From: Woeseiaceae bacterium
Lineage (GTDB): Bacteria > Pseudomonadota > Gammaproteobacteria > Steroidobacterales > Woeseiaceae
Assembly (NCBI GenBank): GCA_021773035.1
Contig: JAJFKU010000024.1
Location: 1-64,000 of the forward strand
Length of the DNA: 64,000 nucleotides
Direction of reading: 5' to 3'
Position numbers and translations under genes: made by a program. The notes under the pieces were generated by a model, which worked only from the letters and a program-made list of their open reading frames with translations, ran no database searches and was not told the origin of the DNA. Below, piece after piece: positions 2,504 through 20,346 of this stretch (position 1 is the stretch's first letter; each line of letters starts with the position of its first letter).

Positions 2504-2670
2504 GCCCGTGTCTCCCGGTATCTTCAGTCCAAAAAGTCGATGCGGGAATATTAGCCATTGGCGACAGGCCGAATAAGACACGGATTGGTAAAATCCGGCG
2601 GGCGGAATTTACAAAAACGTTACACTCGATCACGGATCAAACGGTCCCGGAGTGCTAGCCTGAGTAACAG

Positions 2671-3372: not shown

Positions 3373-3375
3373 GGC

Positions 3376-5583
3376 ATGTTGCCAGGACGGATGATCGAAG
3401 GCCTCGACAGGACTCGACTGCGAAACCTGCTCGTAGTGTTCTTTTTGGCACTGTCCGCGCCTACGGCAGTTTTAGTATGGCAGGCATACAGCCAGCTCAA
3501 ATGGGAGGCTTTTCATCAGTACCGCGGCATTGCCGAAGAACTGACGCAACGGATTGACGCTCGTCTCAACGAGATGGTCGAAGTAGCCGACGCCCGCAGC
3601 TTCGCGGACTATACCTTCCTTGTCGTATCGGGCGATCCGAGCGCCAAGTTTGTGCAGCGTTCGCCGTTGTCCGCCTATCCCGTCGTTGCACACTGGCCCG
3701 GTGTGCTGGGTTATTTCCAGGTAGATGCCGATGGTGACTTCAGCACGCCGATCCTGCCACCCGATGGCACGGCGGCCGACAGTCTCGGTATAAGCGACGA
3801 TGAATACAGCCGTCGCCTGAAACTGGCACAGGAGCTGCAGGCTGTTCTCGCCGACAACCGCCTGGTTAGATCCCGCCCAGACATCACTGCCGGTCGTGGA
3901 TTCGCTTCATCCCTGTATGCACCCGCTACATTGCTGGAAGAGGAAAAGGAGGCGGTCGGTGAAGGTGGACCGGCGACTTCCGGACTCACCGACAAAGAGA
4001 CCGTCGATCGACAGGATGCGAAGCTGCCTGAACGATCTGCTTACTCTGATACGAGCTACAGCCAGCAGGTTTTCGACGAATTGAATCAGCCCAGGCAGAG
4101 CCGGGGACACGAACCCGGGCGTGCCGGCTCACTGGAATCCGATGATGCGGCAGCCGAGCTACTGCCAGCGGAACAACGCGCGAACGTCGTTGGCAAGGTC
4201 AGCGCCCTGAATCTGGATGTCGACCTGCAGAAGAAGATCGAAGCTCTTGAACGCAAAGCACCGCCGGAGCTGTACGGTAGTGACGGCTCGGCCATTGCGG
4301 CGGGCCGAAGAAAGCGCATGGAACAAAGCGCGCTGCCCGAATCGGTCGCCATCGCAAACGACGAGTCGTTTGCAGATGAACTGGTCGCGAACGTACCCGG
4401 ACCTACAGACCTGCGTATCAGTACCTTTGAAAGTGAGATCGACCCGTTCGAGTTCAGTCTTCTCGACAGCGGTCACTTCGTCCTGTTCCGCCAGGTATGG
4501 CGCGACGATCAGCGAACCATCCAGGGTTTATTGCTGGATTCGGCGGTTTTCACGCAGGACATTGCCGGCACGAGCTTCATGGGTACGGCGCTTGCTGACA
4601 CGACAAGCCTGATCATTGCGTACCAGGACGATGTGATTTACACACTCGGCGGGCGCGATGTTCTGAGTTATCCCGATGTTGCCGAGGATCTTGATGGGAC
4701 GCTGCTGTATCGCAGCCGCCTGATCGCACCGCTGAATAGCCTGGAACTGATTTTCAGCATCAAGCGCCTGCCTCCGGGTCCGGGTGCGACCGTACTCGGC
4801 TGGGTTACGCTGGTTCTGGCTGCTGTTCTCGTCGGCGGCTTCGCTATTTTGTACCGGATAGGCCTGGGCCAGATCAGGCTCTCCCGGCAACAGCAGGACT
4901 TCGTGTCGGCAGTCAGCCATGAGCTCAAATCGCCACTCACGTCTATTCGTATGTATGGCGAAATGCTCAAGGAAGGCTGGGCGGACGAGGAGAAAAAGCA
5001 GAGCTATTACGAATTCATCCACGATGAGTCAGAGCGCCTGTCCAGGCTTATCTCCAATGTCCTGCAGCTTGCCAGGATCACCAGAAACGAACCGCAATTC
5101 GATATGAAACCGGCACCGGTTGCCGAGTTGATGGGTAATATCGAATCCAAGATATCAAGCCAGATCGAGAGCGCCGGTTTTGAGCTCAGGCTCAACAGGG
5201 CCGAAGACGCCGATCGCGCCACGATCAATATTGACGAAGACTGCTTCGCCCAGATGATCATCAACCTGGTTGACAACGCCATCAAGTTCTCCAGGGACGC
5301 GGGAGACAAGATCATCGAGATCAGCAGCCAGACTGCGGGCGATGATCGGGTCTTGTTTTCGGTCCGCGACTACGGTCCCGGGATTCCCGCGGAGCAGATG
5401 AAAAAGATCTTCCAGCTTTTCTATCGGTCCGAGTCGGAGCTTACTCGCGAAACCGTCGGTACCGGCATTGGACTGGCGATCGTGCACCAGCTCGCAGTAG
5501 CAATGGACGGTAACGTGGATATGGTCAATGCAAATCCCGGAGCGGAGTTCAGGTTCTGGTTTCCGACGGTGGACCAGGAGTAA
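3376..5583 (+). CDS. Sensor histidine kinase with very large periplasmic region
   Basis: The product has 735 residues. A first membrane segment lies near residues 15-37 and a second near 471-495; between them are about 430 residues, probably periplasmic, rich in acidic and polar residues and with no fold I can name. Directly after the second membrane segment comes the HisKA box (SAVSHELKSPL, H515), with little room for a HAMP domain, then the HATPase domain with N box (NLVDNAIKFS near 629), DYGPGIP and GTGIGLAIV. All kinase motifs are intact. It is coupled to the OmpR-type regulator and so is the cognate kinase. The large sensor domain suggests detection of an envelope component. An internal ATG five codons in is an alternative start. 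Confidence 0.9.
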   Translation: MLPGRMIEGLDRTRLRNLLVVFFLALSAPTAVLVWQAYSQLKWEAFHQYRGIAEELTQRIDARLNEMVEVADARSFADYTFLVVSGDPSAKFVQRSPLSAYPVVAHWPGVLGYFQVDADGDFSTPILPPDGTAADSLGISDDEYSRRLKLAQELQAVLADNRLVRSRPDITAGRGFASSLYAPATLLEEEKEAVGEGGPATSGLTDKETVDRQDAKLPERSAYSDTSYSQQVFDELNQPRQSRGHEPGRAGSLESDDAAAELLPAEQRANVVGKVSALNLDVDLQKKIEALERKAPPELYGSDGSAIAAGRRKRMEQSALPESVAIANDESFADELVANVPGPTDLRISTFESEIDPFEFSLLDSGHFVLFRQVWRDDQRTIQGLLLDSAVFTQDIAGTSFMGTALADTTSLIIAYQDDVIYTLGGRDVLSYPDVAEDLDGTLLYRSRLIAPLNSLELIFSIKRLPPGPGATVLGWVTLVLAAVLVGGFAILYRIGLGQIRLSRQQQDFVSAVSHELKSPLTSIRMYGEMLKEGWADEEKKQSYYEFIHDESERLSRLISNVLQLARITRNEPQFDMKPAPVAELMGNIESKISSQIESAGFELRLNRAEDADRATINIDEDCFAQMIINLVDNAIKFSRDAGDKIIEISSQTAGDDRVLFSVRDYGPGIPAEQMKKIFQLFYRSESELTRETVGTGIGLAIVHQLAVAMDGNVDMVNANPGAEFRFWFPTVDQE

Positions 5584-6120: not shown

Positions 6121-6191
6121 ACGAATAGTTCGTATACAAATTATATTGCAATGATGAGTCCACCCAGATAGTTTGTCAACAAATAGTTTGT
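6121..6191. promoter_or_regulatory. Divergent promoter with two MarR-type palindromic operators
   Basis: Two 13-bp perfect palindromes share the form ACRAATAGTTYGT: ACGAATAGTTCGT at 6121-6133 and ACAAATAGTTTGT at 6179-6191. A third, degenerate copy (AGATAGTTTGT) lies at 6166-6176. On the minus strand a TATAAT box (6140-6145) places the cytochrome transcription start inside the first palindrome. The second sits just upstream of the MarR-type start. This layout suits repression of both genes by the encoded regulator. Confidence 0.65.
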
Positions 6192-6214
6192 ATGCTCTGC
6201 ACAGGAGATCAGCG

Positions 6215-6640
6215 GTGGCCGCAGCCCGGTTGGACAATCAGCTCTGTTTTGCACTGTATTCGGCCTCGAATCGGCTGACCAGTATCTATCGGCCAATCCT
6301 GGAGCCGTTGGGGCTGACGTATACCCAGTTCGTTGTCCTGATGGCGCTGTGGGAACAAGACGGCGTTTCAATCAGCGAACTCGCGCAAAGAACACAATTG
6401 AGTAAACCGACGATGACCCCGTTGCTCAGGCGTCTGGAAAGCAAAGAGCTGATTCAGCTCGATCGTGTTGCCGGGAACGACCGGCAGAAAAGTGTGACCT
6501 TAACGAGGGAGGGTCAGGCGCTCGCGTCCAAAAGCCTGCCTGCGACCGAAGCCGCCTTCTGTGCGACCGGTATCACGAAAAAACAGGCCAGCGAAATGAT
6601 CGGCTTATGCAATCGAATCGTGCATCACGACCGGTCGTAA
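6215..6640 (+). CDS. MarR-family regulator, OhrR-like
   Basis: The product has 141 residues with a MarR winged-helix domain (VSISELAQRTQLSKPTMTPL as recognition region, then RVAGNDRQK as the wing). The N-terminus reads LDNQLCFALYSASN, which matches the OhrR segment carrying the redox-sensing cysteine; the partner tyrosines typical of OhrR are partly present. It could therefore sense organic peroxides or other electrophiles and lose DNA binding when Cys is oxidised. The start is GTG at 6215, because AGGAGA lies 6 bp upstream; the frame is open upstream to a TTG with no ribosome site. No ohr gene is adjacent; the divergent cytochrome P460 gene is the likely target together with autoregulation. 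Confidence 0.82.
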   Translation: MAAARLDNQLCFALYSASNRLTSIYRPILEPLGLTYTQFVVLMALWEQDGVSISELAQRTQLSKPTMTPLLRRLESKELIQLDRVAGNDRQKSVTLTREGQALASKSLPATEAAFCATGITKKQASEMIGLCNRIVHHDRS

Positions 6641-6672: not shown

Positions 6673-7497
6673 TCAGGCAACACTCTTCAAATACCTGAAA
6701 GCGTCGCTGTCAGGTCGACTACGTTGCTTGCCATAGCGTTTTGACAGGCCCTTGATACGTGCGATTCGCTCGCGGGTTTCCGGGTGAGTCGACATCAGGC
6801 AGGACTGCAACGGGACCTTGCCCGGCTCAAGGGCCAGTAATTTTTCGAAGAAGCTGTGCGCGAGCCGCATGTCGTAGCCGGTCCGGGCCAGTGCGCGAAC
6901 GGAAAACGCATCGGCTTCGTGTTCCTTCAGGCGCGCATAGGCGGTATAGATAATCTCCGGCGCGACCTGGTCAAACTGTTTGGCGACAATGCTGTCACTC
7001 ACCGCCTTACTCTGCCGATTCAGCAAGTTGTGATCAATACTGCGAAACAGCTCCTGCGCCATCATTCGCTCGATGGCATGTCGATGTTCGACATGACCGA
7101 CCTCGTGAGCAATAACAGATGCCAGTTCAACCTCGGATTCGCAGGCGCGTACCAGGCCGCGCAACATGCAAACCACGCCGCCACCCACGGTAAACGCGTT
7201 AATGGCTCCAACGTCGGCAGTACCGATACGCCAGTCCAGCGTCGATCGCGTCGAACTCGTGAATAATGGCTCGGCAATCGACCGCATGGCCCGGTTGAAC
7301 GTCGCGTCATCGATCGGTGAGTACTTCGTGTCCCCTCGTTCGAACTCTCCCTTCATAAAAACGCGCCAGAAATAATCCGCCATCAGTTTTTCCTGCTGCT
7401 CGGATGTCATCAGCTCGGTAGCGGCCATGCTGATGCCGGGCATCAGCAGGCTGCTTGCCGCCAGTAACAAGCGTCGTCGCGTCCGATCCTGAATCAT
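6673..7497 (-). CDS. Exported M48-family metallopeptidase
   Basis: The product has 274 residues. It opens with an arginine-rich n-region and hydrophobic stretch (RTRRRLLLAASSLL) that looks like an export signal. The peptidase core holds the zinc motif HEVGH (131-135) and a downstream EHEAD segment supplying the third ligand (E194). M48 enzymes of this size (BepA/LoiP type) are periplasmic quality-control proteases for outer-membrane proteins. The start at 7495-7497 is four bases after the previous stop, so the gene is coupled to the upstream 543-residue protein. It is the last gene of the CsgG-like operon, where it could process or proofread the envelope proteins encoded upstream. Confidence 0.85.
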   Translation of the reverse strand: MIQDRTRRRLLLAASSLLMPGISMAATELMTSEQQEKLMADYFWRVFMKGEFERGDTKYSPIDDATFNRAMRSIAEPLFTSSTRSTLDWRIGTADVGAINAFTVGGGVVCMLRGLVRACESEVELASVIAHEVGHVEHRHAIERMMAQELFRSIDHNLLNRQSKAVSDSIVAKQFDQVAPEIIYTAYARLKEHEADAFSVRALARTGYDMRLAHSFFEKLLALEPGKVPLQSCLMSTHPETRERIARIKGLSKRYGKQRSRPDSDAFRYLKSVA

Positions 7498-7501
7498 CGA
7501 C

Positions 7502-9133
7502 TTACTCACAGTTCTTGTTGTCGCACTGCACCCGAATTTCGACGGTTGCCGCCGCTCTCGATGGCGCCCGGAAGCGAAAATCCCGGGTCGCTTTCGACTC
7601 GACACGAACATCGATACGCTGACTGAACTCCGACTCGATAACCACGCCGCCGGCATCACGCCATACAGGTTCCAACGTGACTGCATAGGTGCGACGCTTT
7701 TTGTTTCTAAGCGCAATCTCCGCGACGTTGACTGACATCGATACGCCCGTGGATTGATCCTGACGCATAGTCACGAGTTCACTGCGCTCGACCGCAAAGG
7801 CGCTCTTCGCTTTCCTGTCATTCCAGGCAATACTCGGTGGTTTTTTGGCGTTCTCGGTCGAAAACGCTATGGTCAGGCCATTCCAGCGATCGACATCAAC
7901 ATTGGCCGAATAGTTCGACTGCTCCAGCATCGTTCGCAAGTCGTCTGCGAGCGCTACGAATCGCGTCGAGCTGTCCGAGGTAAATGCATACACATGCTCG
8001 TCGCGGGCACTGGTTTCCGTGTCGGGCACCAACTCGCCGTACGAGGCCGGAAACCAGCGTTCTATCTGCTGTAAGGCGCGTCGTCCTGCCGGCTTATCCC
8101 GGCTTACGCCAACGACCCGGACCGACGATTTACGCGGCTGCTTCGAAGACTCGCCACCGGACCTGACCTTCCTGGATAAAACAATTTCGCTGTATTGCTG
8201 CGCAATGTAGTTTGCGACATCCCTGTACATTTGATTATTGAGGTCCGCGCGGGCGAGACTCGCCGAATCGCCTTCGCCGTACTTGGGTATCTCCAGCGGC
8301 AGTGGTGACGGCAACGGGCGCTTCGAATCCGTCCGGAAAAACTTTATGCGCGGTTTGATGGTACCTGGCAATACGCCGCGCCGTGCATCGAAGGCCCCTA
8401 TGTCCATCGCTATGTCTTCTACGACGATAACCGCCTCACGATCCAGCAAGCCCATGCAAGCGTCCTGAGCCGCTTCGAGCTTCGCCACGGTTTGGGCAAA
8501 GTTGCCACCTCTGCCGCGATACTTATCTATGCTCTGTTCGTAGGAGCGACAATCGTTGCGGAGTTCGTCCAGCGGTACGTAGGCATCGACGAAGTAGACG
8601 TCGTAGCCGAGCTGTAACTCCAGGCCGTTGTGAATAAACGCCAGTGCATCGTCAGCATCAAGACCGTTAACGGCATTGCGATCGATCGTCATGGCAACGC
8701 GTAGCCGGTTCGCGGCCGCCTGCTCGAGGTAGGTGCTAACGGCGGAACGTAATTCCTGCATATCAACCACGGCTCGCACGTTGCAGGACACGTTTTCCTC
8801 GCGCTCGCACTGGTAATCGAAAGTATCAAAGAGCCTGGTGTGTACCTGGTGAAAATTCTCCTCGATGTCGCGTTCCAGCCGCCGTCTTGCCGGCTCGTCA
8901 AGCGTAGCCGCCCGACCAAGGACGAGTGACAGTGCGTCGGATAATATCCGTTTGCTGGCATCTTTTACGGCTTCGAATTCGCTGGAGCCGGTCGCATTTT
9001 TCTGAATCCGCTCGTGGCTGCCGGTCTGGTGCATGCTTCGCGATTGCTGCGCGTCAGAGGTTTCGGCGAAGCCCAGCCCCAAAAGCAGGGCAATTAACGC
9101 GCACGCACCGCGTAAAGAATCAAGTTTTTTCAT
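7502..9133 (-). CDS. Secreted protein of unknown function, 543 residues
   Basis: A clear signal peptide (residues 1-28, cleavage after TSDAQQ or just before) precedes a mature region with no motif I can assign. Four cysteines near residues 100-115 and 200-230 and a CDNKNCE pair at the extreme C-terminus suggest periplasmic disulphides. The C-terminal 110 residues look like a beta-sandwich (alternating hydrophobic strands). Its start overlaps the end of the upstream gene by 14 bp and its stop is 4 bp from the M48 gene, so it belongs to the same transcript. It is probably a structural or cargo-handling part of the envelope assembly that the operon appears to encode. Confidence 0.72.
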   Translation of the reverse strand: MKKLDSLRGACALIALLLGLGFAETSDAQQSRSMHQTGSHERIQKNATGSSEFEAVKDASKRILSDALSLVLGRAATLDEPARRRLERDIEENFHQVHTRLFDTFDYQCEREENVSCNVRAVVDMQELRSAVSTYLEQAAANRLRVAMTIDRNAVNGLDADDALAFIHNGLELQLGYDVYFVDAYVPLDELRNDCRSYEQSIDKYRGRGGNFAQTVAKLEAAQDACMGLLDREAVIVVEDIAMDIGAFDARRGVLPGTIKPRIKFFRTDSKRPLPSPLPLEIPKYGEGDSASLARADLNNQMYRDVANYIAQQYSEIVLSRKVRSGGESSKQPRKSSVRVVGVSRDKPAGRRALQQIERWFPASYGELVPDTETSARDEHVYAFTSDSSTRFVALADDLRTMLEQSNYSANVDVDRWNGLTIAFSTENAKKPPSIAWNDRKAKSAFAVERSELVTMRQDQSTGVSMSVNVAEIALRNKKRRTYAVTLEPVWRDAGGVVIESEFSQRIDVRVESKATRDFRFRAPSRAAATVEIRVQCDNKNCE

Positions 9134-10454
9134 GACATGCGTCCCTTTTCAGCAATTTGCTGACTGGTTGTTCTTTTAGTTGTTCAAGTTGCTTTACAAG
9201 CTTTTGCACAGTGGCGTCCAGCGCCTCGCGAGCCAGAATGCCGAGCTCGTATTCGTTCAAGACCGTTGCTACCGGTGTTTCGCGAGGCCGCATCAGCGGC
9301 GGTTCTGTGATCGCCATGCCGACCACAGGATCCGGTCGGAAGGTTTCGTTTTGTCCGGCTTCGGAAGCTCTTAGCGCGGCAGCGGTCGCCAGGCGGACCC
9401 GATGGGCGAGGGCATGCTTCGACAGCTCCGTACTACTTACTTCGATCGCCGCGAGGGTTGTCCGGACGTGCCAGCCTGATACCGGGATAACCCTTACGTC
9501 GCTGTCCTGGGCGCAATCCGCACCTATTACTCGCATTCGCGGTGGCGCCTCGCCCATTACGCGGCGCGCGCCGCTGTTTTCGGAGCGGGCAAAGACCCGA
9601 CGTGCGTACTGCGGCCAGAGGTCGACCAGCAGGTCCAGGGTTTCACGACCCGGCAGGATCACCAGGTGCTCGAGTGAAGGTGCCTTGTTCACGGCCTTCA
9701 TCAGCAGAGATTCTGTTATCTGGGCGACGCGCTTTTGTAGCGAGCCAGAGTCCTGTTCCCCGCCGGCGCCAAAAACTGCAGCGAAATTCTCCCGCGCCCT
9801 GGCACCGGGCGGTGCCGCTTCTATCGAAACGTATCGAATATCCAGGGCGTTCCGGACCACCGATCGGGTCTGGTAGTCCGCCACGTGTTGTGCCAATTCC
9901 CGGATACCTTCCTTTACGGCGCTGAGTTCAAGCTGCTGTATGTCATCGTCATTAAACGGTTCGGAGCCCTGGCCTACGGCGGTGCGCTGATGAGTGATTG
10001 CGGATCGTACTTCCGGGAAAGCGCTCGACATGCCAACACTCAGTCGGTCTTGCCCAACATGGACCCACACCAGCTCAGCGCTTGCGAAGTACCGGTACCC
10101 CTTCTCACGAAACGATTCGGAAGTCGTGTTGAGGCTGGTCAAGATGATCACGCCGACATTGAACGGGTCGTCGAGAGGTCGCCAGTCCGCAAGGCTGTGC
10201 GTCAGGTTCGAAACCTTCGTCTGCTGCATGGCTTCGCGCGCAAACTCCGAAAACGCCCAGCGATCATCGTCGCCGATGCCTGCTCGTGCCTGACCTGTTG
10301 CCGTATTCAGTGCCGGTCCCGTGTCTACACCAAGAAAAAAAACGCCCGGGCTTGTGGCGACTGCCGCGAACACCGGAGCAGATGAATAGCCCTGCAACAG
10401 TAACGCCACAATCAGCAGCCTGGATACGCTAATACTATTTGACAGGGAGTTCAC
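9120..10454 (-). CDS. Secreted protein of unknown function, 444 residues
   Basis: A signal peptide (about residues 1-30, with a hydrophobic LLIVALLLQG core) is followed by a region of mixed alpha/beta character. Residues 60-200 contain FNVGVIILTSLN and WVHVGQDRLSVGM strands that recall, weakly, the alpha/beta core of CsgG-like proteins. The C-terminal 60 residues are charged and helical. I recognise no family. It lies 12 bp after the preceding gene's stop and overlaps the next gene, in the middle of the CsgG-like operon. The product should be periplasmic. Confidence 0.7.
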   Translation of the reverse strand: MNSLSNSISVSRLLIVALLLQGYSSAPVFAAVATSPGVFFLGVDTGPALNTATGQARAGIGDDDRWAFSEFAREAMQQTKVSNLTHSLADWRPLDDPFNVGVIILTSLNTTSESFREKGYRYFASAELVWVHVGQDRLSVGMSSAFPEVRSAITHQRTAVGQGSEPFNDDDIQQLELSAVKEGIRELAQHVADYQTRSVVRNALDIRYVSIEAAPPGARARENFAAVFGAGGEQDSGSLQKRVAQITESLLMKAVNKAPSLEHLVILPGRETLDLLVDLWPQYARRVFARSENSGARRVMGEAPPRMRVIGADCAQDSDVRVIPVSGWHVRTTLAAIEVSSTELSKHALAHRVRLATAAALRASEAGQNETFRPDPVVGMAITEPPLMRPRETPVATVLNEYELGILAREALDATVQKLVKQLEQLKEQPVSKLLKRDACHEKT

Positions 10455-10466
10455 AGTGATTGCTCT

Positions 10467-11387
10467 TTACAGGTCGAGCTCTGTGGCCAGTTGAGATTCG
10501 AAAGCTATGTTCTCTTGAGCAATACGCTCTTCCTCCGCTTTGGACGTACTCTCCAGCAGCACACCGTCTGTTTCCGAGGCCCTGGTCGCTGCGGATACTT
10601 TTTGTATGGAGCCCACCGTATTGCTGAGAAGGGTTGCGTGTGCCTTGAAGTTGGCGAGCCGGGTGCTGCGATTCATCGTCCAGCGCACATTTTCGCCCAT
10701 GTACTCAACGAGTCGCTGATCCCATCCGAGAATCTCCGCCCCATAGGTCATGGCCGCCTGCATCGCTCCGGTAGCTTCCGCCAACAGCACCTCGTTGATC
10801 TCCTCTTTCTCTGCGATACCTTTGTCCACCAGCTTGAGACCGCGATCCAGCTCCTTGCGGATGGTGACGAAGTCGCTACGGCTGGGCGCTTCGTCATCAA
10901 CACCTTCAGCGAACAGGCGATCAGCTTCAATCTGGTGATCGATATCGAGGGCCTCAAGTGCCTTGTTCGTCGCAAGCACAACTTTCTCTGCCCAGAACGC
11001 CGACTTCAGCTCCACGTAGTTCCATCGAACTTCGGCGTAACACGGCGACTCGATCTCCTCCGGTAACTCGATTCCATCGACGTTCAGTTTCTTGGAAAGC
11101 TGTGACAGTGCGAGTTTCGTGGTTCGGACTTTGATTTGTTCACGTAGCCCAAACGAGGCCGCATCTGCAGGCGATAGTCCGCACATGTGTTTCTTCTGTA
11201 CGTCCGACATGGGGAGCACCGTCTCAAGCGCCTCGGTTGTCGCCTGTTCGGCGGTCTCATCGGCCTTGTCGGGAACTCCCGGTATCTTGCGTAACAGGTC
11301 GCCAACACCTGCGCTGGCGACTGGTGCGATCGACGCCAAGGTAAGAATGACAATCGCTTTTTTTAATAGTTTGTTTTTTGCACTCAC
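10467..11387 (-). CDS. Secreted helical protein of unknown function
   Basis: The product has 306 residues. I chose a GTG start at 11385-11387: GAGAGGGA lies about 6 bp upstream, and the signal peptide (KKAIVILTLASIAPVASAG) begins there, whereas the open frame upstream has no signal. The mature protein is mostly helical, rich in Glu, Lys and Leu, with a cysteine pair near residues 75 and 115. It lies between the CsgG-like lipoprotein and the 444-residue protein in the same operon. I cannot name the family. Confidence 0.7.
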   Translation of the reverse strand: MSAKNKLLKKAIVILTLASIAPVASAGVGDLLRKIPGVPDKADETAEQATTEALETVLPMSDVQKKHMCGLSPADAASFGLREQIKVRTTKLALSQLSKKLNVDGIELPEEIESPCYAEVRWNYVELKSAFWAEKVVLATNKALEALDIDHQIEADRLFAEGVDDEAPSRSDFVTIRKELDRGLKLVDKGIAEKEEINEVLLAEATGAMQAAMTYGAEILGWDQRLVEYMGENVRWTMNRSTRLANFKAHATLLSNTVGSIQKVSAATRASETDGVLLESTSKAEEERIAQENIAFESQLATELDL

Positions 11388-11415
11388 AAGTTTTCCCTCT
11401 CCCACATGTGTGTTG

Positions 11416-13173
11416 TTACCAGATTGTCTCTTCGCCTGATTCCGCGGACTCCCGTTCTTCCGCTGATACAGGTTGCAGCAGGAGCCCCGCCTCGGCGACT
11501 GCATCGCCGATCATCCTGGCCTGAATCCAGCCGCTCGCATCAAACCCGATAACGCGAAGACGTCCTACCTGTGCACCACCGATATTGCGCAGTATTTCCC
11601 CTGTATTGGCGTCGACCATATCCTGCCCGGCCTTGAAGACGAGGAACTCGTCATTCGCTCGAACGCCAATTGCGGCTTTGTGGTTCAAGGTAAGCAGCTC
11701 GTCAGATACGAAAGCTACGGCCAGCGGCCGCAGTGCCGTCATCAGTGAGCCGAACATCTTCTGGGCTACCCGGTCCGCCGCGCTGACCATTTCCTGATCG
11801 CCGGCATCAATCGTAACTGCGGTGTCCACGGCAACGGCGGCAATGCTGGCAGCGCTGTTAACATCGATGATGTAAGCCGAACCGCGTGCAATAACCGCGG
11901 CCTCAGTCGCGCGCTCTACCTCTACGTCGTAGACCCGCTCCGTCGTGCTTGTTGCCGCGCTTACGGCAACCGACTCCAGGTTGCAGACGGCCAGATAGTC
12001 TACGCCGCGCAGCGAACCCAGCGGCAGCCCGACCTCTCGTCCTTTGCTGAGGTCATCAAGGAGTTGTTGTCCAAGGACCTTATCGCGAAAGACCTCCCTG
12101 TCCTCGACGAGCTCGACACTGTCGTAGTCCTGCAGGTAGATTGCGAGGCGGTTTCGAACGGTGACCGCCCAGGCAGCATTGAACTCTACCGTGGCTTTTT
12201 GAAGACACGGCGTCAGACCCAGGCGAATCTTTGCAGATGCTGCCGGCAAGTCAGCGTCGTCGGAAATTGGTGTTGGCGCGAACGTGACGTCGGTGTCGAG
12301 CGCGATGCCGGTATTTCGCGCAATCGCATATTCGGGAAAAACCTCGAGGATTTCAATCGTTGTAGCGACACTACCGAGATCATCTGTGCTGACCCGGTAC
12401 CGATCGCCAACCTGCACCCCGGCTGCTCGCCCGCCCGACACCTGGACACGTTGTTCACCGCCCGATGTCTCTACGCGCTCAACGATCAACTCTCCAGCCA
12501 GTCCTCGCAATGCCCTCGTCGTTAGTTCCTGCGCGGCATACTGCAGAAACGCATTCACCTGTGTTTCGGCACGACCGCCATCAGCGAAGGTTTTGTCCAG
12601 AACAACCGTGTCGCTGGCAACCCAGCGTCTGGAGTTGACGTCAACCACCCGAAAGTCGATGCTTGAACGAATACGGTTACCGCGAGCAGACAATGCCGCC
12701 TGGCTGGCGTTTCGAACCGGCGTGACGTCGAACCCGTTGATGCTGCCGATCAACACGAAGTCAGCTGTCGGAAAAACCCGGGCATACTCTGTTGTATCGA
12801 TCGAAGCCCGGGTCGATCCGCCCAGCTCCGAATACTCGTTGTCCGAGTCTTGTTGTTGCATCTCGGGAGCGGCCAGCTCCTCACCCGCGTAGTCGAGTTC
12901 TTCCTCCAGTGTCGCGACTCGCTCACCTTCCATAACCTGCCAGTCCGTTCTCGCCCCGAACTCCGTCGCGACCGCGGAAGTAATTCCCATCAGGCGCAAC
13001 GCGTAAGGGCCGGACTCAGCATCACCCGTCGCGCCGAAACTGGCCACCGCGAGTGTGGGTGTCGCGCCGGCTTCCTGTCCAAACCGGGTTTCCTGATCTG
13101 ACGCCTGCTTCGAGCATCCCAGGAGCGAAACACCACACAGCACTATCGCCGCGGGTATCAACGAGTACTTCAT
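11416..13173 (-). CDS. CsgG-like outer-membrane lipoprotein
   Basis: The product has 585 residues with a lipoprotein signal ending in the lipobox LLGC (acylated cysteine about residue 20). The N-terminal half has features of the CsgG/LpoB-type fold: a PTLAVASFG strand, a helix, a VMEGERVATLEEE segment, and a long FVLIGSINGFDV strand with RSSIDFRVVDVNSRRWVAS following. CsgG-like proteins form outer-membrane export pores or activate periplasmic enzymes. A second region (about 330-480) repeats a similar alternation, so the protein may hold two such domains. It overlaps the next CsgG-like gene by 4 bp. The family call rests on pattern only, and a FlgT-like fold is an alternative. Confidence 0.6.
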   Translation of the reverse strand: MKYSLIPAAIVLCGVSLLGCSKQASDQETRFGQEAGATPTLAVASFGATGDAESGPYALRLMGITSAVATEFGARTDWQVMEGERVATLEEELDYAGEELAAPEMQQQDSDNEYSELGGSTRASIDTTEYARVFPTADFVLIGSINGFDVTPVRNASQAALSARGNRIRSSIDFRVVDVNSRRWVASDTVVLDKTFADGGRAETQVNAFLQYAAQELTTRALRGLAGELIVERVETSGGEQRVQVSGGRAAGVQVGDRYRVSTDDLGSVATTIEILEVFPEYAIARNTGIALDTDVTFAPTPISDDADLPAASAKIRLGLTPCLQKATVEFNAAWAVTVRNRLAIYLQDYDSVELVEDREVFRDKVLGQQLLDDLSKGREVGLPLGSLRGVDYLAVCNLESVAVSAATSTTERVYDVEVERATEAAVIARGSAYIIDVNSAASIAAVAVDTAVTIDAGDQEMVSAADRVAQKMFGSLMTALRPLAVAFVSDELLTLNHKAAIGVRANDEFLVFKAGQDMVDANTGEILRNIGGAQVGRLRVIGFDASGWIQARMIGDAVAEAGLLLQPVSAEERESAESGEETIW

Positions 13174-14084
13174 CGGTTTTCTCCTGTTACGCGCAACGTA
13201 TAACCAGCTTTGATCGCAACCTCCTCGCCGCTGCCAGTCATGAACTTCGCAAACGCGATGTCGTCATGAATTTCCGTAATTACCGCTTCGCCCACAGCGA
13301 TGCCGGGGATGCGCTTTTTCGAACCGTTCGCGAGCTCTACGATTTTCGATTCGGCAAAGACCCGAAACCGGTCGCCTTCGGAAAGACCCGCATCCGCGCC
13401 ACGATCAATCACAAAGTAGTCGGGGTGCACGTCGACAACCGATATTGGATTGATTCGCGTCGATATTGAACTAACGATCTCGGCGACCGCCGCGTCAGTA
13501 CGTGTCCGGAGCGGTGCGGCAGATCGGTATCGGCCCTGGCGTTTTTCCTCAAGCGTTTCTTCCAGTGTTGACCACGTATAACTGCCGGCAACATCCTTCG
13601 TGAATTTCTCCACGCCGTCCGCAGCAAGTATTTCAACTCTAAATTCGTAAGTGGCGGTATCGACGCGCTCAAAGACGTCATCCAGTAGCTCCACAGGGCG
13701 ATAGCTTGTGTGAACATCAAATCGGGTCACGCTGGGTCGAAGCAGAGAGTCGGAAACCTGCAGTCCGAACTGCTGGCTGCCTGAACCGGAAGCCAGGCTC
13801 GAATCGGCCAGGCGCTTTTCTTCGAGGATCATCTGCAGGTCTTTCCGATCGCGGCTCAAAACCTGCACACTGCGAGATTGCTGCAGCTCTGATTGCAGCT
13901 GAGCTACCCAGTCAATTTCGTTCAGCAGGTAGCGCTCGTGGGCTGAAAGACGCTCGGGCGACTCGGTCGCTGTAATGACCAGCCTGGGTTGCTGAGCCTG
14001 GACGTTGCCGGCGATGGTGGCCACCACTATTAGTAGGCTTGCGGCCAACGCTGGCCGTAGGTGTGCAACTTCTCGTCTAAGCAT
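13170..14084 (-). CDS. CsgG-like secreted protein
   Basis: The product has 304 residues with a signal peptide (about 10-31, ending VQAQQ). The N-terminal domain resembles CsgG: a strand (PRLVITATE), helices, then SRSVQVLSRDRKDLQMILEEK, which matches the family pattern of a strand followed by R-x-L-x-x-I-L-x-E-x. The C-terminal half (about 205-300) is beta-rich and looks like a small barrel (DVHPDYFVIDRG, EGDRFRVF), as in FlgT or similar envelope proteins. It is the first gene after the predicted sigma-dependent promoter at 14106-14131 and overlaps the downstream lipoprotein gene by 4 bp. Together they probably make an outer-membrane complex. Confidence 0.6.
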   Translation of the reverse strand: MLRREVAHLRPALAASLLIVVATIAGNVQAQQPRLVITATESPERLSAHERYLLNEIDWVAQLQSELQQSRSVQVLSRDRKDLQMILEEKRLADSSLASGSGSQQFGLQVSDSLLRPSVTRFDVHTSYRPVELLDDVFERVDTATYEFRVEILAADGVEKFTKDVAGSYTWSTLEETLEEKRQGRYRSAAPLRTRTDAAVAEIVSSISTRINPISVVDVHPDYFVIDRGADAGLSEGDRFRVFAESKIVELANGSKKRIPGIAVGEAVITEIHDDIAFAKFMTGSGEEVAIKAGYTLRVTGENR

Positions 14085-14105: not shown

Positions 14106-14131
14106 TAGACGAAACTCGCCGGCTTGTTTTC
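14106..14131 (-). promoter_or_regulatory. Predicted ECF-type promoter before the CsgG-like operon
   Basis: On the minus strand GAAAAC (14131-14126) is followed after exactly 14 bp by CGTCTA (14111-14106), preceded by a T-rich tract. The spacing and both boxes recur before the sigma gene and before the DUF1036-like gene. The predicted start lies 15-20 bp upstream of the ATG at 14084. The element lies in the gap after the anti-sigma-position gene, so the CsgG-like genes can be transcribed apart from it. Confidence 0.7.
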
Positions 14132-14145
14132 AAAAATCTAGCGAT

Positions 14146-14952
14146 TTATTTTTCTAAGCTGGCGGTCATCTTCAAAGTAACGCGGCACAGTGCCTGATCG
14201 GACCGGTTTGCCGCACTATTAAGATCATTAACATAGCGGCGCCACGGATCTCGAATAATGGCGTTGCGGCCGCTCGCAAGGCCACGCAGCGAAGTCCGCG
14301 CAGCCGCACTTATCTCGATAGCTCCGGTCGACTGGCAAGACTCCTCCAGATTCCGCAACACCGCGCCTAGCTGGCGTAATTTGTCATTCTCACTGCAGTC
14401 GCCGGTGCAATCGGCCACCAGAGAGTTCCCCAGGAACGCGGACCCGCTCGAGGTTTTTCCGGACGCATACCCGAGTCGAATGGCATCGGCTTCCTGTTCG
14501 ACGGCTGATTGTGCGCTGCCCGGTGACTGCACCACGCGCACATTGCGATCCGACGAAACATCGGCCTCCGGACTGAAAACCATGAATGCCACCAATACTG
14601 AGGCGGCGAGCGCGCTGATACCCGTCAGCACGTAGCGCGTACTAAACCGCAATCTGTTTGAAAATCGCTCTCTGGAATCGATAACCGAGGACTGCTCCCC
14701 GGAATCTGCTTCTTTCTCGGCGAGTTCTTCAGCGAGCACCATAACACGGTCACTGATTTTCGGATTATGTGCAATATGCGAGCGGATTTCCCTGCGGCGC
14801 GACTCCTCGAGCCTGCCGCGCAAGTACTCCAGTAACTCGGCATCTCCGGGGCCAGGGCCGTCCCCTGTCCCTGTCTGGGCCAGCAGGCCAAACAACGCGT
14901 ACACGCCATCGCCTCGCTCAAGAGCGTCTGTATCCTTGCGTTTTTCGTTCAT
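14146..14952 (-). CDS. Single-pass membrane protein, probable anti-sigma factor
   Basis: The product has 268 residues. The N-terminal about 110 residues are cytoplasmic in character, with a helical ELLEYLRGRLEESRRREIRSH stretch resembling the anti-sigma ASD helix but without the zinc-binding HxxxCxxC cysteines. One membrane segment follows (about residues 108-127), then a periplasmic part with a cysteine pair (DCTGDC near 185) and a helical end. Its start overlaps the sigma factor gene by 4 bp, the usual arrangement of an ECF sigma and its regulator. The anti-sigma role rests on position and topology rather than on a recognised domain. Confidence 0.65.
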   Translation of the reverse strand: MNEKRKDTDALERGDGVYALFGLLAQTGTGDGPGPGDAELLEYLRGRLEESRRREIRSHIAHNPKISDRVMVLAEELAEKEADSGEQSSVIDSRERFSNRLRFSTRYVLTGISALAASVLVAFMVFSPEADVSSDRNVRVVQSPGSAQSAVEQEADAIRLGYASGKTSSGSAFLGNSLVADCTGDCSENDKLRQLGAVLRNLEESCQSTGAIEISAAARTSLRGLASGRNAIIRDPWRRYVNDLNSAANRSDQALCRVTLKMTASLEK

Positions 14953-15710
14953 AGCGTACCCGCCTCCGCATCAAGATCATGGCGCGAGAAAACGTCCCGA
15001 ATACGTTCGATGGCTTCCTGCCAACGATTGTGTGCAGTACCGATCGAGCACTGCATCATGGCTGCACACGTGGCGAAGCCTTTGTCATTGAGCCCTTTCG
15101 CACGAAGCACGATCCAGTGCTCGTCGCTTAAACTCTGCGCCAGCTCTGCCTGAATTCGTGTGAACACGGCGAGCAGCTGTTCATCGATGTCCGTGCGCAG
15201 CTTTCCTCTCAGACAGTCAAACAGCAGCTGAAAACAGGCTGAACGTTCGACGCCGATCGCCACGGCTTCAGGACTCGTATCGTCAAATGTCCTTGACGTC
15301 GTCGTATCGGCTGCGAATCCATCATGCTTGCGTGCGGTACTGGTGTTCTTGCGAATCGCGTCAATGAGTTTGCGCCTGGTAGCCGAAACCAGGTACGCCT
15401 CGAGGTTGAGCGGTGCCTCGGGTTGCTCGCGCCGGTTAACGCTGCCAAAAACGGCTATCAAAGCTTCATGATAAGCGTCCTCAAGCTCATCGCGAGAGCC
15501 GCTGATTCCACGTAGGACACGCCGACGTATGTTCTCGTAGAGTCGAGCGCTGAGCCACGTATTTTTATTATTGTCGGGCAAGGGCAGTGATTTTCCGGTC
15601 CAATTCGCCGCCTGAGCAGGACGTTGCTCAAACCGCTTCAGCAACGCTATCTCAAGATAGCTTGCACGCTTTAGTCTACCGGCAAACTGGTCAAACGCAA
15701 TAGAAGTCAT
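14949..15710 (-). CDS. ECF-like RNA polymerase sigma factor
   Basis: The product has 253 residues. Region 2 is visible at about 75-140 (ELEDAYHEALIAVFGS, then LEAYLVSATRRKLIDAIRK) and a diverged region 4 at about 190-240 (LSDEHWIVLRAKG, then a helix-turn-helix around MMQCSIGTAHNRWQEAIERI). The protein is longer than a typical ECF sigma (about 180-200), with extra residues at the N-terminus and between the regions. It is likely to direct transcription from the three GAAAAC-N14-CRTCYA elements nearby, including one just before its own start, which implies autoregulation. That promoter sits so close that the message would be almost leaderless if the ATG at 15710 is right. Confidence 0.78.
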   Translation of the reverse strand: MTSIAFDQFAGRLKRASYLEIALLKRFEQRPAQAANWTGKSLPLPDNNKNTWLSARLYENIRRRVLRGISGSRDELEDAYHEALIAVFGSVNRREQPEAPLNLEAYLVSATRRKLIDAIRKNTSTARKHDGFAADTTTSRTFDDTSPEAVAIGVERSACFQLLFDCLRGKLRTDIDEQLLAVFTRIQAELAQSLSDEHWIVLRAKGLNDKGFATCAAMMQCSIGTAHNRWQEAIERIRDVFSRHDLDAEAGTL

Positions 15711-15719
15711 GTCGAGTAC

Positions 15720-15745
15720 TGGATGAGAATAAACCGCTTGTTTTC
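15720..15745 (-). promoter_or_regulatory. Predicted ECF-type promoter before the sigma gene
   Basis: On the minus strand GAAAAC (15745-15740) is followed after exactly 14 bp by CATCCA (15725-15720). This is the same -35 box and spacing as the promoter at 14106-14131, with a -10 differing at two positions. It would give autoregulation of the sigma factor. The predicted start is only a few bases from the ATG. Confidence 0.6.
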
Positions 15746-15801
15746 AAAGACTTCGTTGGGCTGCCGGGCCCTTTGAGCCCTGTTCCATGGTGCATTGTCT
15801 G

Positions 15802-16479
15802 CTAGGCCGAGCACGTTAGTCGCAGCTCCGTATCGCCGCTGGTATCAGTCAACTTCCTCATTGCAAGGGGCTTGTTCTCCAGTTTTGCCGAGTGATCGCC
15901 TTTCCATACCAGTGATTGATCCGTAGTTTCGGCGTAATAATAGGACGCCGTACTGTTCGTCCTTGCGTAGGTTCCATTGTTGAACTTCAAAAACCGTGAC
16001 GAATTCGCGCTGAACGTCCACCAGCCGGCCGTCGTCCAGTTGCCGTCTGGCTGCAGGTAGCGAAGTGCCAGTCGTACCGGTTGCTTGCACTCGTTCGCAA
16101 CGTGGAACTTGAAACCAGTGGGTGAAGTGGATGGAGGTGTAGTAGTCCTCTGCCGTGTCTGGTTATTGTTGCCGGCGCAGGCATCCGGATCGAGGGCGCA
16201 GACAAGCAACCCAACGGTGATCGCGGCCCGGCCGATGTCGTTACCCACAGAGGTTTCGCGTGATATCAGACTGGACGGCTTCACCCAGCTTGTCGTGCCG
16301 TCTGTGCTCCGCCGAACCTTGACCCGATGGCCCTGGTAGTCGATTCGGACGATGTGCACGAGGTCATCAGAAAAAATGCCCTGAACATAAACGCCGTCGC
16401 CGACGTCGAGGTCGCTAATACGGGCAGCGTGAGCGGCACCCAGCACCAATAGTAGAAATAGTCCGATTGTCTTCTTCAC
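15802..16479 (-). CDS. Secreted protein with SH3-like N-terminus and DUF1036-like domain
   Basis: The product has 225 residues with a signal peptide (1-18, LGAAHA). Residues 20-75 (VGDGVYVQGIFSDDLVHIVR, then VKVRRSTDGTTSWVKPSSL) look like a small SH3 or Tudor-like barrel. A short hydrophobic stretch and a Thr/Pro/Asn-rich linker follow. The C-terminal about 100 residues match the DUF1036 pattern: N-ECKQPVRLALRY, a WTTAGWW motif, YYYAETTDQSLVWKGDH, and a closing cysteine. It lies upstream of the sigma gene, on the same strand, with its own sigma-type promoter, so it probably belongs to the same envelope regulon. The DUF1036 role is unknown. Confidence 0.7.
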   Translation of the reverse strand: MKKTIGLFLLLVLGAAHAARISDLDVGDGVYVQGIFSDDLVHIVRIDYQGHRVKVRRSTDGTTSWVKPSSLISRETSVGNDIGRAAITVGLLVCALDPDACAGNNNQTRQRTTTPPSTSPTGFKFHVANECKQPVRLALRYLQPDGNWTTAGWWTFSANSSRFLKFNNGTYARTNSTASYYYAETTDQSLVWKGDHSAKLENKPLAMRKLTDTSGDTELRLTCSA

Positions 16480-16563
16480 CGTTTCCTCCCACGTCGTTGT
16501 TGACGCTAAAGTTCTTTGAAACCAGGATGACCGTGAGTTTCCGAATCCTGTCGCTTTGACAGG

Positions 16564-16589
16564 TAGACGTTCGTCATTGGCCTGTTTTC
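16564..16589 (-). promoter_or_regulatory. Predicted ECF-type promoter before the DUF1036-like gene
   Basis: On the minus strand GAAAAC (16589-16584) is followed after exactly 14 bp by CGTCTA (16569-16564), identical in both hexamers to the CsgG-operon promoter. A run of seven T precedes the -35 box. The predicted start gives a leader of about 75-80 bases before the ATG at 16479. I see nothing else in 16590-16742. Confidence 0.68.
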
Positions 16590-16742
16590 AAAAAAAGGTG
16601 AAAAATCTGCCGCGGGCACGGCAGTCGTGCCGGGGTTTCTGATCGGTGATAACTATCTCGTTGCGGCAAAAAGCGGCGGTGTTCCGGGCTGGTGCAGCCG
16701 CAGGATCGATATTTTCAGGGTCGAACGCACGCCCGCCATTTT

Positions 16743-17664: not shown

Positions 17665-20346
17665 TCAGGCCGCTTGTCTGCGCCTCCTTCCGACGAACAC
17701 GACGAAGATAACAACTAATAAAACTCCCAAGGCAATAGCGACAGCACGTGTACGTTTTGCCGCCGGACCGCCGGCAGACGTCTCGGGACCGGCAAAAGCG
17801 AATCGCGAATCGGCTTCCAAGCGATTCGGATTACCGATACTGAGCTTGACCTCCAGACCGTCAGGAAAAAACGACATGCCGAGAACGGCGGAGCGAAATT
17901 CACTTATGCGTTCGCGCAATCTTTCGGCGGGCAGGGTCTGCGCCAGTAACGCGGACAACTGCTCACCACGCCGGTCGCCCGCGAGGTCTTCAAGTAATGC
18001 GCGTTCCTGGCCGGCGACCAGGTACAGCGTGCCGTCAAGCGCTTCGAATTGCATACCGTAAAACGCTTCTGGCAGGTTGAGATAATAGCCCTTCGTGTTT
18101 TGCAGAGTTCCATCGTAGCCGGGCAGAGACTTGGCCAGCGTTAGCGCTTCCCTTAGAGCATTGTAGTGTGCCGCAAGCTGAGTGTTTATGTTCTGGCCCC
18201 ACAAGTTGAAATCGCGACCCATTTCGAACGAGGACACCTTTTCAAAATCGAGCGCCGCAACAATGTTGTGTTTCGCTCCGACGTGGGCGAAACCGCGCTC
18301 CAGTCGTTCCGAAAAATCCGCTTTACCGACATCCTGCTGAGCGTCGATAATTCGATTCATCGCGATTTGAGAAATTGTCAGATAGAACGCGTCTTCATAA
18401 AAAATGTAGAACACGTTAACGAAGCCGGTCGGCAACATATAGTACTTCTGACCGTTGTACTCGTTGCTAAGCGGTTCTGTACTTGAGAGTTGGAACATCC
18501 CCATTCCGCGGCCACCAAACTCGCTTGCGAAACGAGTCCATAATTTCTTGAAAAATTCCTCCGCGCGCGCACTGTCGTTGAGCTTCAGCCCAAACCAGAC
18601 GTCGATATCCGCAATATTGCTCACTGAAAACGAGTTCTTTTCGCCAACGCCGAGAAAAATTTCATCACCGATGAAATCCAGCAGGCGTTCACCTTCCGCA
18701 AGCTCTTCGTTTAGCAGTTCATTTGAAATCTCTTCTTCGGCCGCACGGATCAAACGTGTCCGCCTGGCTTCCTCTGTTTCGCCATCAAGGGCTTCCCCAC
18801 GACGGCGTCCACCCGCCTGCATTAACAAATTGTCGATCGAAAAGTTACCAGCCAGGTTGACTGCGCCGAGTCGCTCGGCTTCGAAAAGAAACGACAAAAC
18901 ACCAGTTTTCCCGCCGAAAAATTCGGACAACTGACGATAGTCACTGTTGTCGATAAGAGGCAGGATAAGGGTGTGCAGGTATAGCTGGTCGGATATCGTA
19001 TACGCTATACCGACGGGGTCGAAAAACTCCCGGAAGAAGCTCTGGTAACCTGCGGAAAAGCGCTCGTAATTTTCCTTCTCCGTCGTTGAGACGGTCGAAA
19101 TGGGCACCTGGCCGACGGGTACGACAGACCACAAGGAGCCCCACGTGTCGTGTGCGATACGTCCTTCGGAGTCGATACTGTAATTCTCGGGTGCGTAAAC
19201 CGCATCGACCTGAATGTAGTTTTTTTCGAGCATGTCATCGAGCGAGCCTGGCCATTCGCCATGTATCCGTCGATAGGCAAACACGCTGTACTGCAGAGTC
19301 TCCAGTGCGTCGAGTACCGTGTTACGGCGACGTGCATTAATGCGATAGCCCGGGCCGGTCAACTTACGGATGAAAGCTTCGGACATATAGATCAGCCCGT
19401 CGCGTTGCGGCTCCATCTTTAGTAGCGCGTAGTGGTAGTCGAGTGCACTGGCCATGGCGGCTTCCTCGTTTTGCGCCGCGTGTTCTATGCGATCGATAAT
19501 CGCCTCATGCGTTGCTACAACAATATGCTCACCGACTTTCCGGTATATCGCCTGATCGCTTACGACCAGTTCAAACCCTTTCTCGGCGATCGCATTAACG
19601 GGCTTTAGCACCAGTGCATAGTCCGTACGTGGCATAAACGACAGGTCGTCGCTGACAAACGCCAACTCGTCGACCGCTGCGACAAAGGCGTCGACGTCCG
19701 GGATTCCGAGACGTTGCATCATTTTCTCTTTCAGATCGGCAGTGCCTGCCAAGCCATAGACGTCGCCCAGCAGGTCTGTTTGCTGCTCGAGTATTTTCTC
19801 GAGTTCAAGAAACTGTGCGGGATGAATCACGTGCACGAACAGCATATCGCGGGGAACCAGGCCTGCAATTGCAGGCACTTCAACAGCCTGCTCGGCGACC
19901 ATGTCATTCCACGGATGCGACGGTATATCGACCAGCTCAATATCGTCTATCGGGATCGCCCCGGAACGATCATCGCCTGCTCGATTCACGCCGATCGAAC
20001 CGAGCTGCAAGCTCTCGTCAATCGCTCGCTGACCGGTCAGTAGCGTGGCTGAACTCGAGAATGAACTTCGATTGTTGCCGCCCGGCTGAGCGCCAAGCAG
20101 TTCATTTCGCAAATTAGTGCGCGTTCGAGCCCAACGCCAGTCGTTGTTCGCCCTCGCGCCTTCTTCTCGCGCGTGGCTCAGCATGTTGAGCTGCATCTGC
20201 AGAATCGGGTTGGCGGAGTCCTGAGAGAGTTCGTTTCGAACTCGCTGTAGTTCCTCGTCGTCTTGAGCGTAAATTGGTGCAAGGAAACTTAGTGCCAGAA
20301 CGAAAACCGCACCGCGGGTTGCAATGTTCATGGATGGCTTGGGCAT
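17665..20346 (-). CDS. Large C-terminally anchored secreted protein of unknown function
   Basis: The product has 893 residues. A signal peptide (about 6-27, LAPIYAQ) is followed by a long periplasmic region, then one hydrophobic segment at the extreme C-terminus (about 868-886) and a basic end (GRRRRQAA), which together predict a type I membrane anchor. Residues 130-330 hold repeated strand-helix elements (DMLFVHVIHPAQFLELEKIL, DYALVLKPVNAIAEKGFELV) like the DUF3352-type periplasmic fold, and a segment near 360-390 (ILDALETLQYSVFAYRRIHG) resembles it again. I cannot assign a function. It is monocistronic. Confidence 0.7.
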   Translation of the reverse strand: MPKPSMNIATRGAVFVLALSFLAPIYAQDDEELQRVRNELSQDSANPILQMQLNMLSHAREEGARANNDWRWARTRTNLRNELLGAQPGGNNRSSFSSSATLLTGQRAIDESLQLGSIGVNRAGDDRSGAIPIDDIELVDIPSHPWNDMVAEQAVEVPAIAGLVPRDMLFVHVIHPAQFLELEKILEQQTDLLGDVYGLAGTADLKEKMMQRLGIPDVDAFVAAVDELAFVSDDLSFMPRTDYALVLKPVNAIAEKGFELVVSDQAIYRKVGEHIVVATHEAIIDRIEHAAQNEEAAMASALDYHYALLKMEPQRDGLIYMSEAFIRKLTGPGYRINARRRNTVLDALETLQYSVFAYRRIHGEWPGSLDDMLEKNYIQVDAVYAPENYSIDSEGRIAHDTWGSLWSVVPVGQVPISTVSTTEKENYERFSAGYQSFFREFFDPVGIAYTISDQLYLHTLILPLIDNSDYRQLSEFFGGKTGVLSFLFEAERLGAVNLAGNFSIDNLLMQAGGRRRGEALDGETEEARRTRLIRAAEEEISNELLNEELAEGERLLDFIGDEIFLGVGEKNSFSVSNIADIDVWFGLKLNDSARAEEFFKKLWTRFASEFGGRGMGMFQLSSTEPLSNEYNGQKYYMLPTGFVNVFYIFYEDAFYLTISQIAMNRIIDAQQDVGKADFSERLERGFAHVGAKHNIVAALDFEKVSSFEMGRDFNLWGQNINTQLAAHYNALREALTLAKSLPGYDGTLQNTKGYYLNLPEAFYGMQFEALDGTLYLVAGQERALLEDLAGDRRGEQLSALLAQTLPAERLRERISEFRSAVLGMSFFPDGLEVKLSIGNPNRLEADSRFAFAGPETSAGGPAAKRTRAVAIALGVLLVVIFVVFVGRRRRQAA

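What the first reader, a model, noticed from the sequence alone, without database searches (positions are those of the whole stretch)
14106..16589. A sigma-factor regulon defined by three copies of one promoter motif
GAAAAC, exactly 14 bp, then CRTCYA occurs before the sigma gene (15720-15745), before the CsgG-like operon (14106-14131) and before the DUF1036-like gene (16564-16589). The -35 box is identical in all three; two of the -10 boxes are identical. All face the genes and lie in gaps. A sigma factor that reads its own promoter plus two neighbouring units, with a probable anti-sigma gene, is a compact regulon. I searched the window by eye for further copies and found none, so the motif is specific here.
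Basis: partly seen in the sequence, partly recalled or inferred. Interest (0 to 1): 0.78.

Follow-up and report, generated by a model that had tools for sequence, protein, structure and literature searches.

The report
Self-switching sigma factor's three-promoter regulon
One promoter-like sequence occurs in full form exactly three times in a 5.4-million-base genome, before a sigma-factor gene and two neighbouring gene units, so this sigma factor likely switches on its own gene and those likely cell-envelope neighbours: a sound but ordinary kind of local bacterial gene circuit.

Summary
GAAAAC-N14-CRTCYA occurs three times in the window, at the stated places, facing a gene from a gap each time (shuffles: 0.01 expected). 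The shared block is longer than reported: TTTGAAAACARGCS-N9-CRTCYA, with exactly three copies in the 5.38-Mb genome; the next-best two have three mismatches and lie inside called reading frames. Among 7140 triples of upstream gaps in the window, this triple is the most alike (17 of 29 columns; next 14). The -10 half is significant by itself (about 1e-4). The gene at 14949-15710 encodes an ECF-type sigma factor, and AAC / CGT is the described ECF promoter signature. Most likely this is a positively autoregulated ECF sigma factor with a predicted membrane anti-sigma, driving a predicted six-gene CsgG-like operon and a DUF1036 gene. The sigma family is rare: 1 of 73 genus genomes (many incomplete) and five relatives on short contigs. 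Equal contig lengths suggest that two relatives keep DUF1036 or the CsgG-like gene beside sigma. No DNA of a locus with a sigma homologue could be had, so promoter conservation and activity are untested. A fourth exact copy of the short motif lies before a DUF4136 lipoprotein gene. New member of a known kind.

The parts
15720..15748 (-). predicted ECF promoter of the sigma gene: TTTGAAAACAAGCG-N9-CATCCA; -10 ends 9 nt before the ATG, so the mRNA would be leaderless or nearly so
   Evidence: sequence
14106..14134 (-). predicted ECF promoter of the CsgG-like operon: TTTGAAAACAAGCC-N9-CGTCTA; -10 ends 21 nt before the ATG, with GGGAGAAG as likely ribosome site in between
16564..16592 (-). predicted ECF promoter of the DUF1036 gene: TTTGAAAACAGGCC-N9-CGTCTA; -10 ends 84 nt before the GTG start, with GGGAGG as likely ribosome site
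14949..15710 (-). ECF-type sigma factor, 253 aa (P0001): about 50-aa N-terminal extension, region 2 (58-123), region 4 (about 176-245)
14146..14952 (-). predicted membrane anti-sigma factor, 268 aa (P0002); overlaps the sigma gene by 4 nt; one membrane helix near 108-126; no Cys in its first 100 residues
   Evidence: assignment inferred
13170..14084 (-). CsgG-like, predicted exported protein, 304 aa (P0003), first gene of the downstream run
11416..13173 (-). predicted lipoprotein of 585 aa (P0005), no Pfam match itself, related to a tandem CsgG/FlgT_C protein of another family (L066)
10467..11504 (-). gene of the run without a Pfam family; the true start is probably near 11387 or 11405
9120..10454 (-). 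gene of the run without a Pfam family, predicted exported, 444 aa
7502..9133 (-). gene of the run, predicted exported, 543 aa; only sub-threshold matches (HbpS-like E 0.0018, DUF1425 E 0.048)
6673..7716 (-). M48 peptidase, last gene of the same-strand run; start probably internal
15802..16479 (-). predicted exported DUF1036 protein, 225 aa (P0004)
16607..16624 (-). terminator-like hairpin with T-run, between the DUF899 gene and the third promoter; the scan found no more hairpins than chance (4 against 4.6)

Best explanation
The three sites are most likely promoters read by the ECF-type sigma factor encoded at 14949-15710, which is predicted to switch on its own gene together with a predicted membrane anti-sigma factor, a predicted six-gene CsgG-like operon, and a DUF1036 gene. 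Shown: the three sites, their shared block, their places before the genes, their absence in full form elsewhere in the genome, and the sigma-factor identity of the protein. Inferred: that this sigma factor reads them; that the product of 14146-14952 holds it at the membrane until an envelope signal arrives; that release starts a positive feedback loop which raises sigma, anti-sigma and the exported products together; and that the two target units act in the envelope. The sigma mRNA would start at, or within about 3 nt of, its AUG.
Against: No transcript, binding or mutant data. No DNA from any locus with a homologous sigma gene, so promoter conservation is untested (searches). The conserved -35-side block (14 nt) is longer than a usual ECF -35 box, so part of it could bind another factor; a MarR-family gene (6173-6640) lies next to the end of the run and an OmpR-type response regulator at 2671-3372. 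The sigma promoter leaves only 9 nt before the ATG and no evident ribosome site. One of the three -10 boxes has CAT, not CGT. The anti-sigma assignment rests on layout and a sub-threshold zf-HC2 match. P0001 scores just under the TIGR02937 cut-off, and PDB sequence matches are weak (E 0.09-0.22). Equal contig length is indirect evidence of linkage.
Confidence: 0.8

Rival explanations
1. The conserved block is the binding site of another regulator (an activator or repressor, for example the MarR-family protein of 6173-6640) that overlaps three promoters; the neighbouring sigma factor plays no part.
For: The -35-side block is 14 nt long (TTTGAAAACARGCS), more than an ECF -35 box usually holds (recalled). 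A MarR-family gene lies on the other strand just beyond the M48 gene (PF01047 E 1.4e-14), and an OmpR-type response regulator at 2671-3372.
Against: By eye the block is not a palindrome or direct repeat, which MarR-type sites usually are (recalled). A second conserved box with the ECF -10 sequence follows at a fixed distance. The sigma gene itself carries one of the three sites.
Confidence: 0.1
2. Another sigma factor of the same cell (RpoE, or RpoH with its CTTGAAA-type -35) reads the three sites.
For: TTTGAAA resembles an RpoH -35 box, and the spacing is like that of RpoE promoters (both recalled).
Against: The full motif exists only in this locus, whereas RpoE can have up to 89 target units in E. 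coli (PMC2893595 passage) and RpoH many (recalled). The boxes do not match GGAACTTTT / GTCAAA (PMC1804206 passage). The search for TTGAAA-N12..15-CCCCAT found no site at all, so it neither supports nor excludes RpoH.
Confidence: 0.06
3. Chance or copying: the gaps share sequence because a short promoter segment was duplicated, without present function.
For: All three lie within 2.5 kb.
Against: By eye the similarity stops at the promoter-like block (60-base flanks printed). The chance of a triple within 2.5 kb at the genus background rate is roughly 3e-6 per genome. The -35 side and the -10 side are conserved while the 9 bases between are not.
Confidence: 0.04

Closest known systems
Neisseria meningitidis sigma-E (RpoE) with its small regulon (PMC2893595, passages read)
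   Same: ECF sigma controlling its own operon, very small regulon (rpoE operon plus msrA/msrB), -10 motif CGTCTAAH
   Different: -35 motif differs (GTMAGBWTT there, TTTGAAAAC here); msrA/msrB there, CsgG-like and DUF1036 proteins here
Bacillus subtilis SigW (-35 box ATTGAAACCTTT; PMC8103513, passages read)
   Same: -35 box with TTGAAA core and A-tract followed by AAC; membrane anti-sigma RsiW (recalled)
   Different: SigW has a broad regulon (recalled); the regulon predicted here is three local promoters
E. coli RpoE-RseA (sigma-E boxes seen in PMC1804206 and PMC8103513, passages read)
   Same: Two-domain ECF sigma with co-encoded membrane anti-sigma and positive autoregulation; promoter spacing alike (recalled)
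   Different: -35 is GGAACTT there; large regulon there; P0002 has no sequence match among solved structures, which include RseA
   Same: CsgG-like gene and tandem CsgG/FlgT_C gene one gene apart; P0003 relative at E 3.1e-21, P0005 relative at BLASTP E 3e-16 for the single pair (best of 20 shuffles 0.014)
   Different: L066 carries caspase, SH3, DUF1425 and LpoB genes and no sigma homologue in 19 kb; the other run proteins compared (543 aa, 444 aa) show no relation

Membership tests
ECF (group IV) sigma factor | sigma-70 region 2 | tested here: met
   PF04542 E 2.5e-8, 34 bits against a cut-off of 24
ECF (group IV) sigma factor | sigma-70 region 4, no region 1 or 3 | tested here: met
ECF (group IV) sigma factor | promoters with AAC at -35 and CGT at -10 | tested here: met
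   GAAAAC / CGTCTA, CATCCA, CGTCTA; one of three has CAT in place of CGT; signature from PMC8103513; use of the promoters by this sigma is untested
ECF (group IV) sigma factor | positive autoregulation | not testable with these tools
   the motif lies before its own gene; activity needs an experiment
Membrane anti-sigma factor | gene directly downstream of the sigma gene, one membrane helix after an N-terminal domain | tested here: met
   4-nt overlap with the sigma gene; one hydrophobic segment at 108
Membrane anti-sigma factor | recognisable anti-sigma domain | tested here: inconclusive
   no family above cut-off; zf-HC2 E 0.077
Zinc-binding (ZAS, zf-HC2) anti-sigma factor | HxxxCxxC motif and zf-HC2 match | tested here: not met
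   no Cys in the first 100 residues; zf-HC2 13.6 bits against 22.2
CsgG family | Pfam CsgG domain | tested here: met
   P0003 21.2 bits against a cut-off of 20.8, only 63 of 210 profile positions; its relatives P0011 and P0013 show no CsgG match (P0012 not scanned), so a distant member at best
DUF1036 | Pfam DUF1036 | tested here: met
   P0004 25.9 bits against 23; relative P0015 28.8, relative P0018 20.9, below

The most novel reading that the evidence does not exclude
A new, very rare ECF sigma group with a promoter language of its own (TTTGAAAACARGC-N10-CRTCYA), a leaderless sigma mRNA and a zinc-free anti-sigma factor, travelling as a self-contained cassette with a CsgG-like export machine and a DUF1036 surface protein: a single-purpose sigma factor whose whole regulon lies within its own cassette.
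Probability: 0.35. Interest if true: 0.5.

Novelty: new member of a known kind. Interest (0 to 1): 0.34.

Why it matters
It gives a clean case of a sigma factor whose promoter set can be read off one genome and appears confined to its own neighbourhood. It links a group of unnamed CsgG-like and DUF1036 proteins to one switch, and offers a sigma-promoter pair that could be tested directly. The general principle, an autoregulated ECF sigma factor with a local regulon, is well known.

Tried and rejected
Genomic homologues of the sigma gene: none confirmed in the 84,980-species genome collection by peptide patterns; in 98 other relatives only one weak sigma match (E 9.3e-5, G074); none at E <= 1e-8 in 395 other order genomes or 72 other genus genomes (31 of all 73 are at least 90% complete and at most 5% contaminated); none in plasmids or viral contigs. 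CsgG-like relatives in viral contigs: none. Pattern scans are not proof of absence.

CsgG-like homologues: 8 of 195 other order genomes have weak matches. The one I looked at closely (L046) is a LysM-type protein in an unrelated neighbourhood (by eye). One of 368 other class genomes has a good one (G611). P0005: weak matches in 2 of 195 others. In ten stretches around such matches and in L066 no sigma homologue was found (tblastn at default words; with words of 2 and by profile on 1279 frames), and no GAAAAC-N12..16-CRTCYA. at default words missed the P0005 relative in L066 that searches show, so one search is the one to rely on.

One search used a spacer one base too long by my mistake: its 3 hits are not the three sites. 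It was repeated correctly; one search serves only as a shifted-spacing control (3 hits at 3 mismatches).

The RpoH consensus search found nothing and decides nothing. The structure model is poor (mean pLDDT 51.6), so the fold matches are supporting only. Two comparisons of run proteins with L066 proteins gave nothing. GC content shows no island at the locus.

Papers: searches for CsgG with 'extracytoplasmic function sigma' and 'anti-sigma' and for TGAAAAC with 'ECF sigma' found no paper in the library. PMC8103513, PMC2893595, PMC1804206, PMC3498285 and PMC6180224 were seen as passages (the last also as abstract and outline); others as search listings only. A search with 'Woeseia' (listing only) rested on my guess of the genus and was not followed.

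Full report
What was checked. The pattern GAAAAC-N14-CRTCYA is present at 14106-14131, 15720-15745 and 16564-16589, all on the - strand, with 3 matches in the window against 0.01 expected. I took all 36 upstream gaps of at least 40 bases among 54 genes of a simple reading-frame caller and scored every triple by its best ungapped 29-base block. The triple named by the finding scores 17 identical columns, the single highest of 7140; two triples score 14 and none 15 or 16. First-order resamples of the three gaps reach at most 13 (3000 runs).

The block is longer than reported. Aligned, the three sites read TTTGAAAACAAGCC-GGCGAGTTT-CGTCTA, TTTGAAAACAAGCG-GTTTATTCT-CATCCA and TTTGAAAACAGGCC-AATGACGAA-CGTCTA. 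In the whole genome (5,382,403 bases, 76 contigs, 99.99% complete) the extended pattern has three exact copies and only two more at up to three mismatches, against three for the reversed control; those two lie inside called reading frames. Anchored on the -35 side, the -10 boxes are conserved beyond chance (19 of 200,000 shuffles, 32 of 200,000 random triples). The nine bases between are not conserved, as expected for a promoter spacer.

Background. The short pattern is not rare by itself: 131 matches in the 72 other genomes of the genus, about 0.57 per Mb, against 77 for the reversed control (genome sizes rounded). No sigma homologue was found in those genomes at E <= 1e-8, though many are incomplete. 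In the listing I see no second cluster of three; the closest pair I see is in G026 (374 bases apart, opposite strands). The window's genome has four exact short matches: the three here, and G000:C8:19244-19269. At the genus rate about three would be expected in a genome of this size, so it is the clustering and not the number that stands out. All four lie outside called reading frames, while 25 of the 26 one-mismatch sites examined (of 125; the first in contig order) lie inside. The fourth faces a DUF4136 lipoprotein gene 101 bases away. It lacks the extension and one such site is within expectation, so I list it only as a candidate target.

The proteins. The gene at 14949-15710 encodes a sigma factor with region 2 (Pfam, E 2.5e-8) and region 4 (TIGR02937 spans 58-239; 6 of 6 family members match it). 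The protein itself is 0.9 bits under that family's cut-off, and matches to solved structures by sequence are weak. A low-confidence model matches mostly sigma factors over both domains, with middling Z. In the protein collection it has five relatives, all on short contigs (that search reaches only relatives sharing short words), and 1 of 73 genus genomes holds it, so it is a rare family. The next gene overlaps it by 4 nt and encodes a protein with one membrane helix. Its N-terminal part resembles zf-HC2 anti-sigma domains only below threshold (E 0.077) and has no Cys. I infer a zinc-free anti-sigma factor.

The targets. Promoter 14106-14134 faces a same-strand run of six genes with overlaps or a 12-nt gap between the frames as called: a CsgG-like protein, a 585-aa predicted lipoprotein without a Pfam match, three proteins of which two have no Pfam family and one only sub-threshold matches, and an M48 peptidase. 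Five of the six have an N-terminal hydrophobic segment, counting the probable internal start of the 345-aa frame. A distant genome of the class holds relatives of the first two, one gene apart, with caspase, SH3, DUF1425 and LpoB genes and no sigma homologue within 19 kb. Promoter 16564-16592 faces a predicted exported DUF1036 protein. A terminator-like hairpin separates it from the upstream DUF899 gene, though such hairpins are no more frequent here than by chance.

Neighbourhood. A sigma and a DUF1036 relative each come from a jgi contig of 2274 bases, and a sigma and a CsgG-like relative each from an lgn contig of 3967 bases. If equal length and source mean the same contig, the cassette is kept together across relatives of 85% and 60% sigma identity. 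The other relatives (three sigma, two CsgG-like, five DUF1036) share no contig length. The DNA of those contigs was out of reach, so the motif could not be checked there. That is the main gap.

Other regulators nearby. A MarR-family gene (6173-6640) lies on the other strand just beyond the last gene of the run, and an OmpR-type response regulator with its kinase at 2671-5583.

How it likely works. ECF sigma factors are described as reading AAC / CGT promoters, being co-transcribed with an anti-sigma factor and being positively autoregulated; the A-tract of the -35 box sets the DNA shape for region 4 (PMC8103513, passages). The locus fits this. An envelope signal would release sigma from the membrane, and sigma would then raise its own operon, the CsgG-like operon and DUF1036. 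The signal and the function of the exported proteins are unknown; CsgG-like proteins suggest export or envelope assembly (inference). One odd detail follows: the sigma promoter ends 9 nt before the ATG with no evident ribosome site between, and the first in-frame alternative start is residue 23. The first residues are conserved in three relatives, which favours the ATG, so a leaderless mRNA is predicted.

Verdict. It is a new member of a well-known kind.

Noticed in passing
L001:1501-1526 (G000:C8:19244-19269): Fourth exact copy of the short motif, outside called reading frames, 101 bases before a DUF4136 lipoprotein gene; possible extra target, no extended match.
   Followed up: partly
15710-15720: Only 9 nt between the sigma promoter's -10 box and the ATG, without an evident ribosome site: the sigma mRNA would be leaderless.
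   Followed up: partly
L066 (G611:C1:99000-118000): Cluster of caspase/FGE/PEGA, CsgG-like, tandem CsgG-FlgT_C, SH3, DUF1425 and LpoB genes in another family of the class; relatives of P0003 and P0005 one gene apart without a sigma gene.
   Followed up: partly
17665-20346: An 893-aa protein with an apparent signal peptide and no Pfam match at E 0.001, next to the DUF899 gene.
   Followed up: no
1949-5583: PspA/IM30 gene beside a divergent OmpR-type response regulator and histidine kinase: a possible second envelope-stress unit in the same window.
   Followed up: partly
6173-6640: MarR-family regulator gene on the + strand, 32 bases beyond the M48 gene that ends the CsgG-like run.
   Followed up: partly
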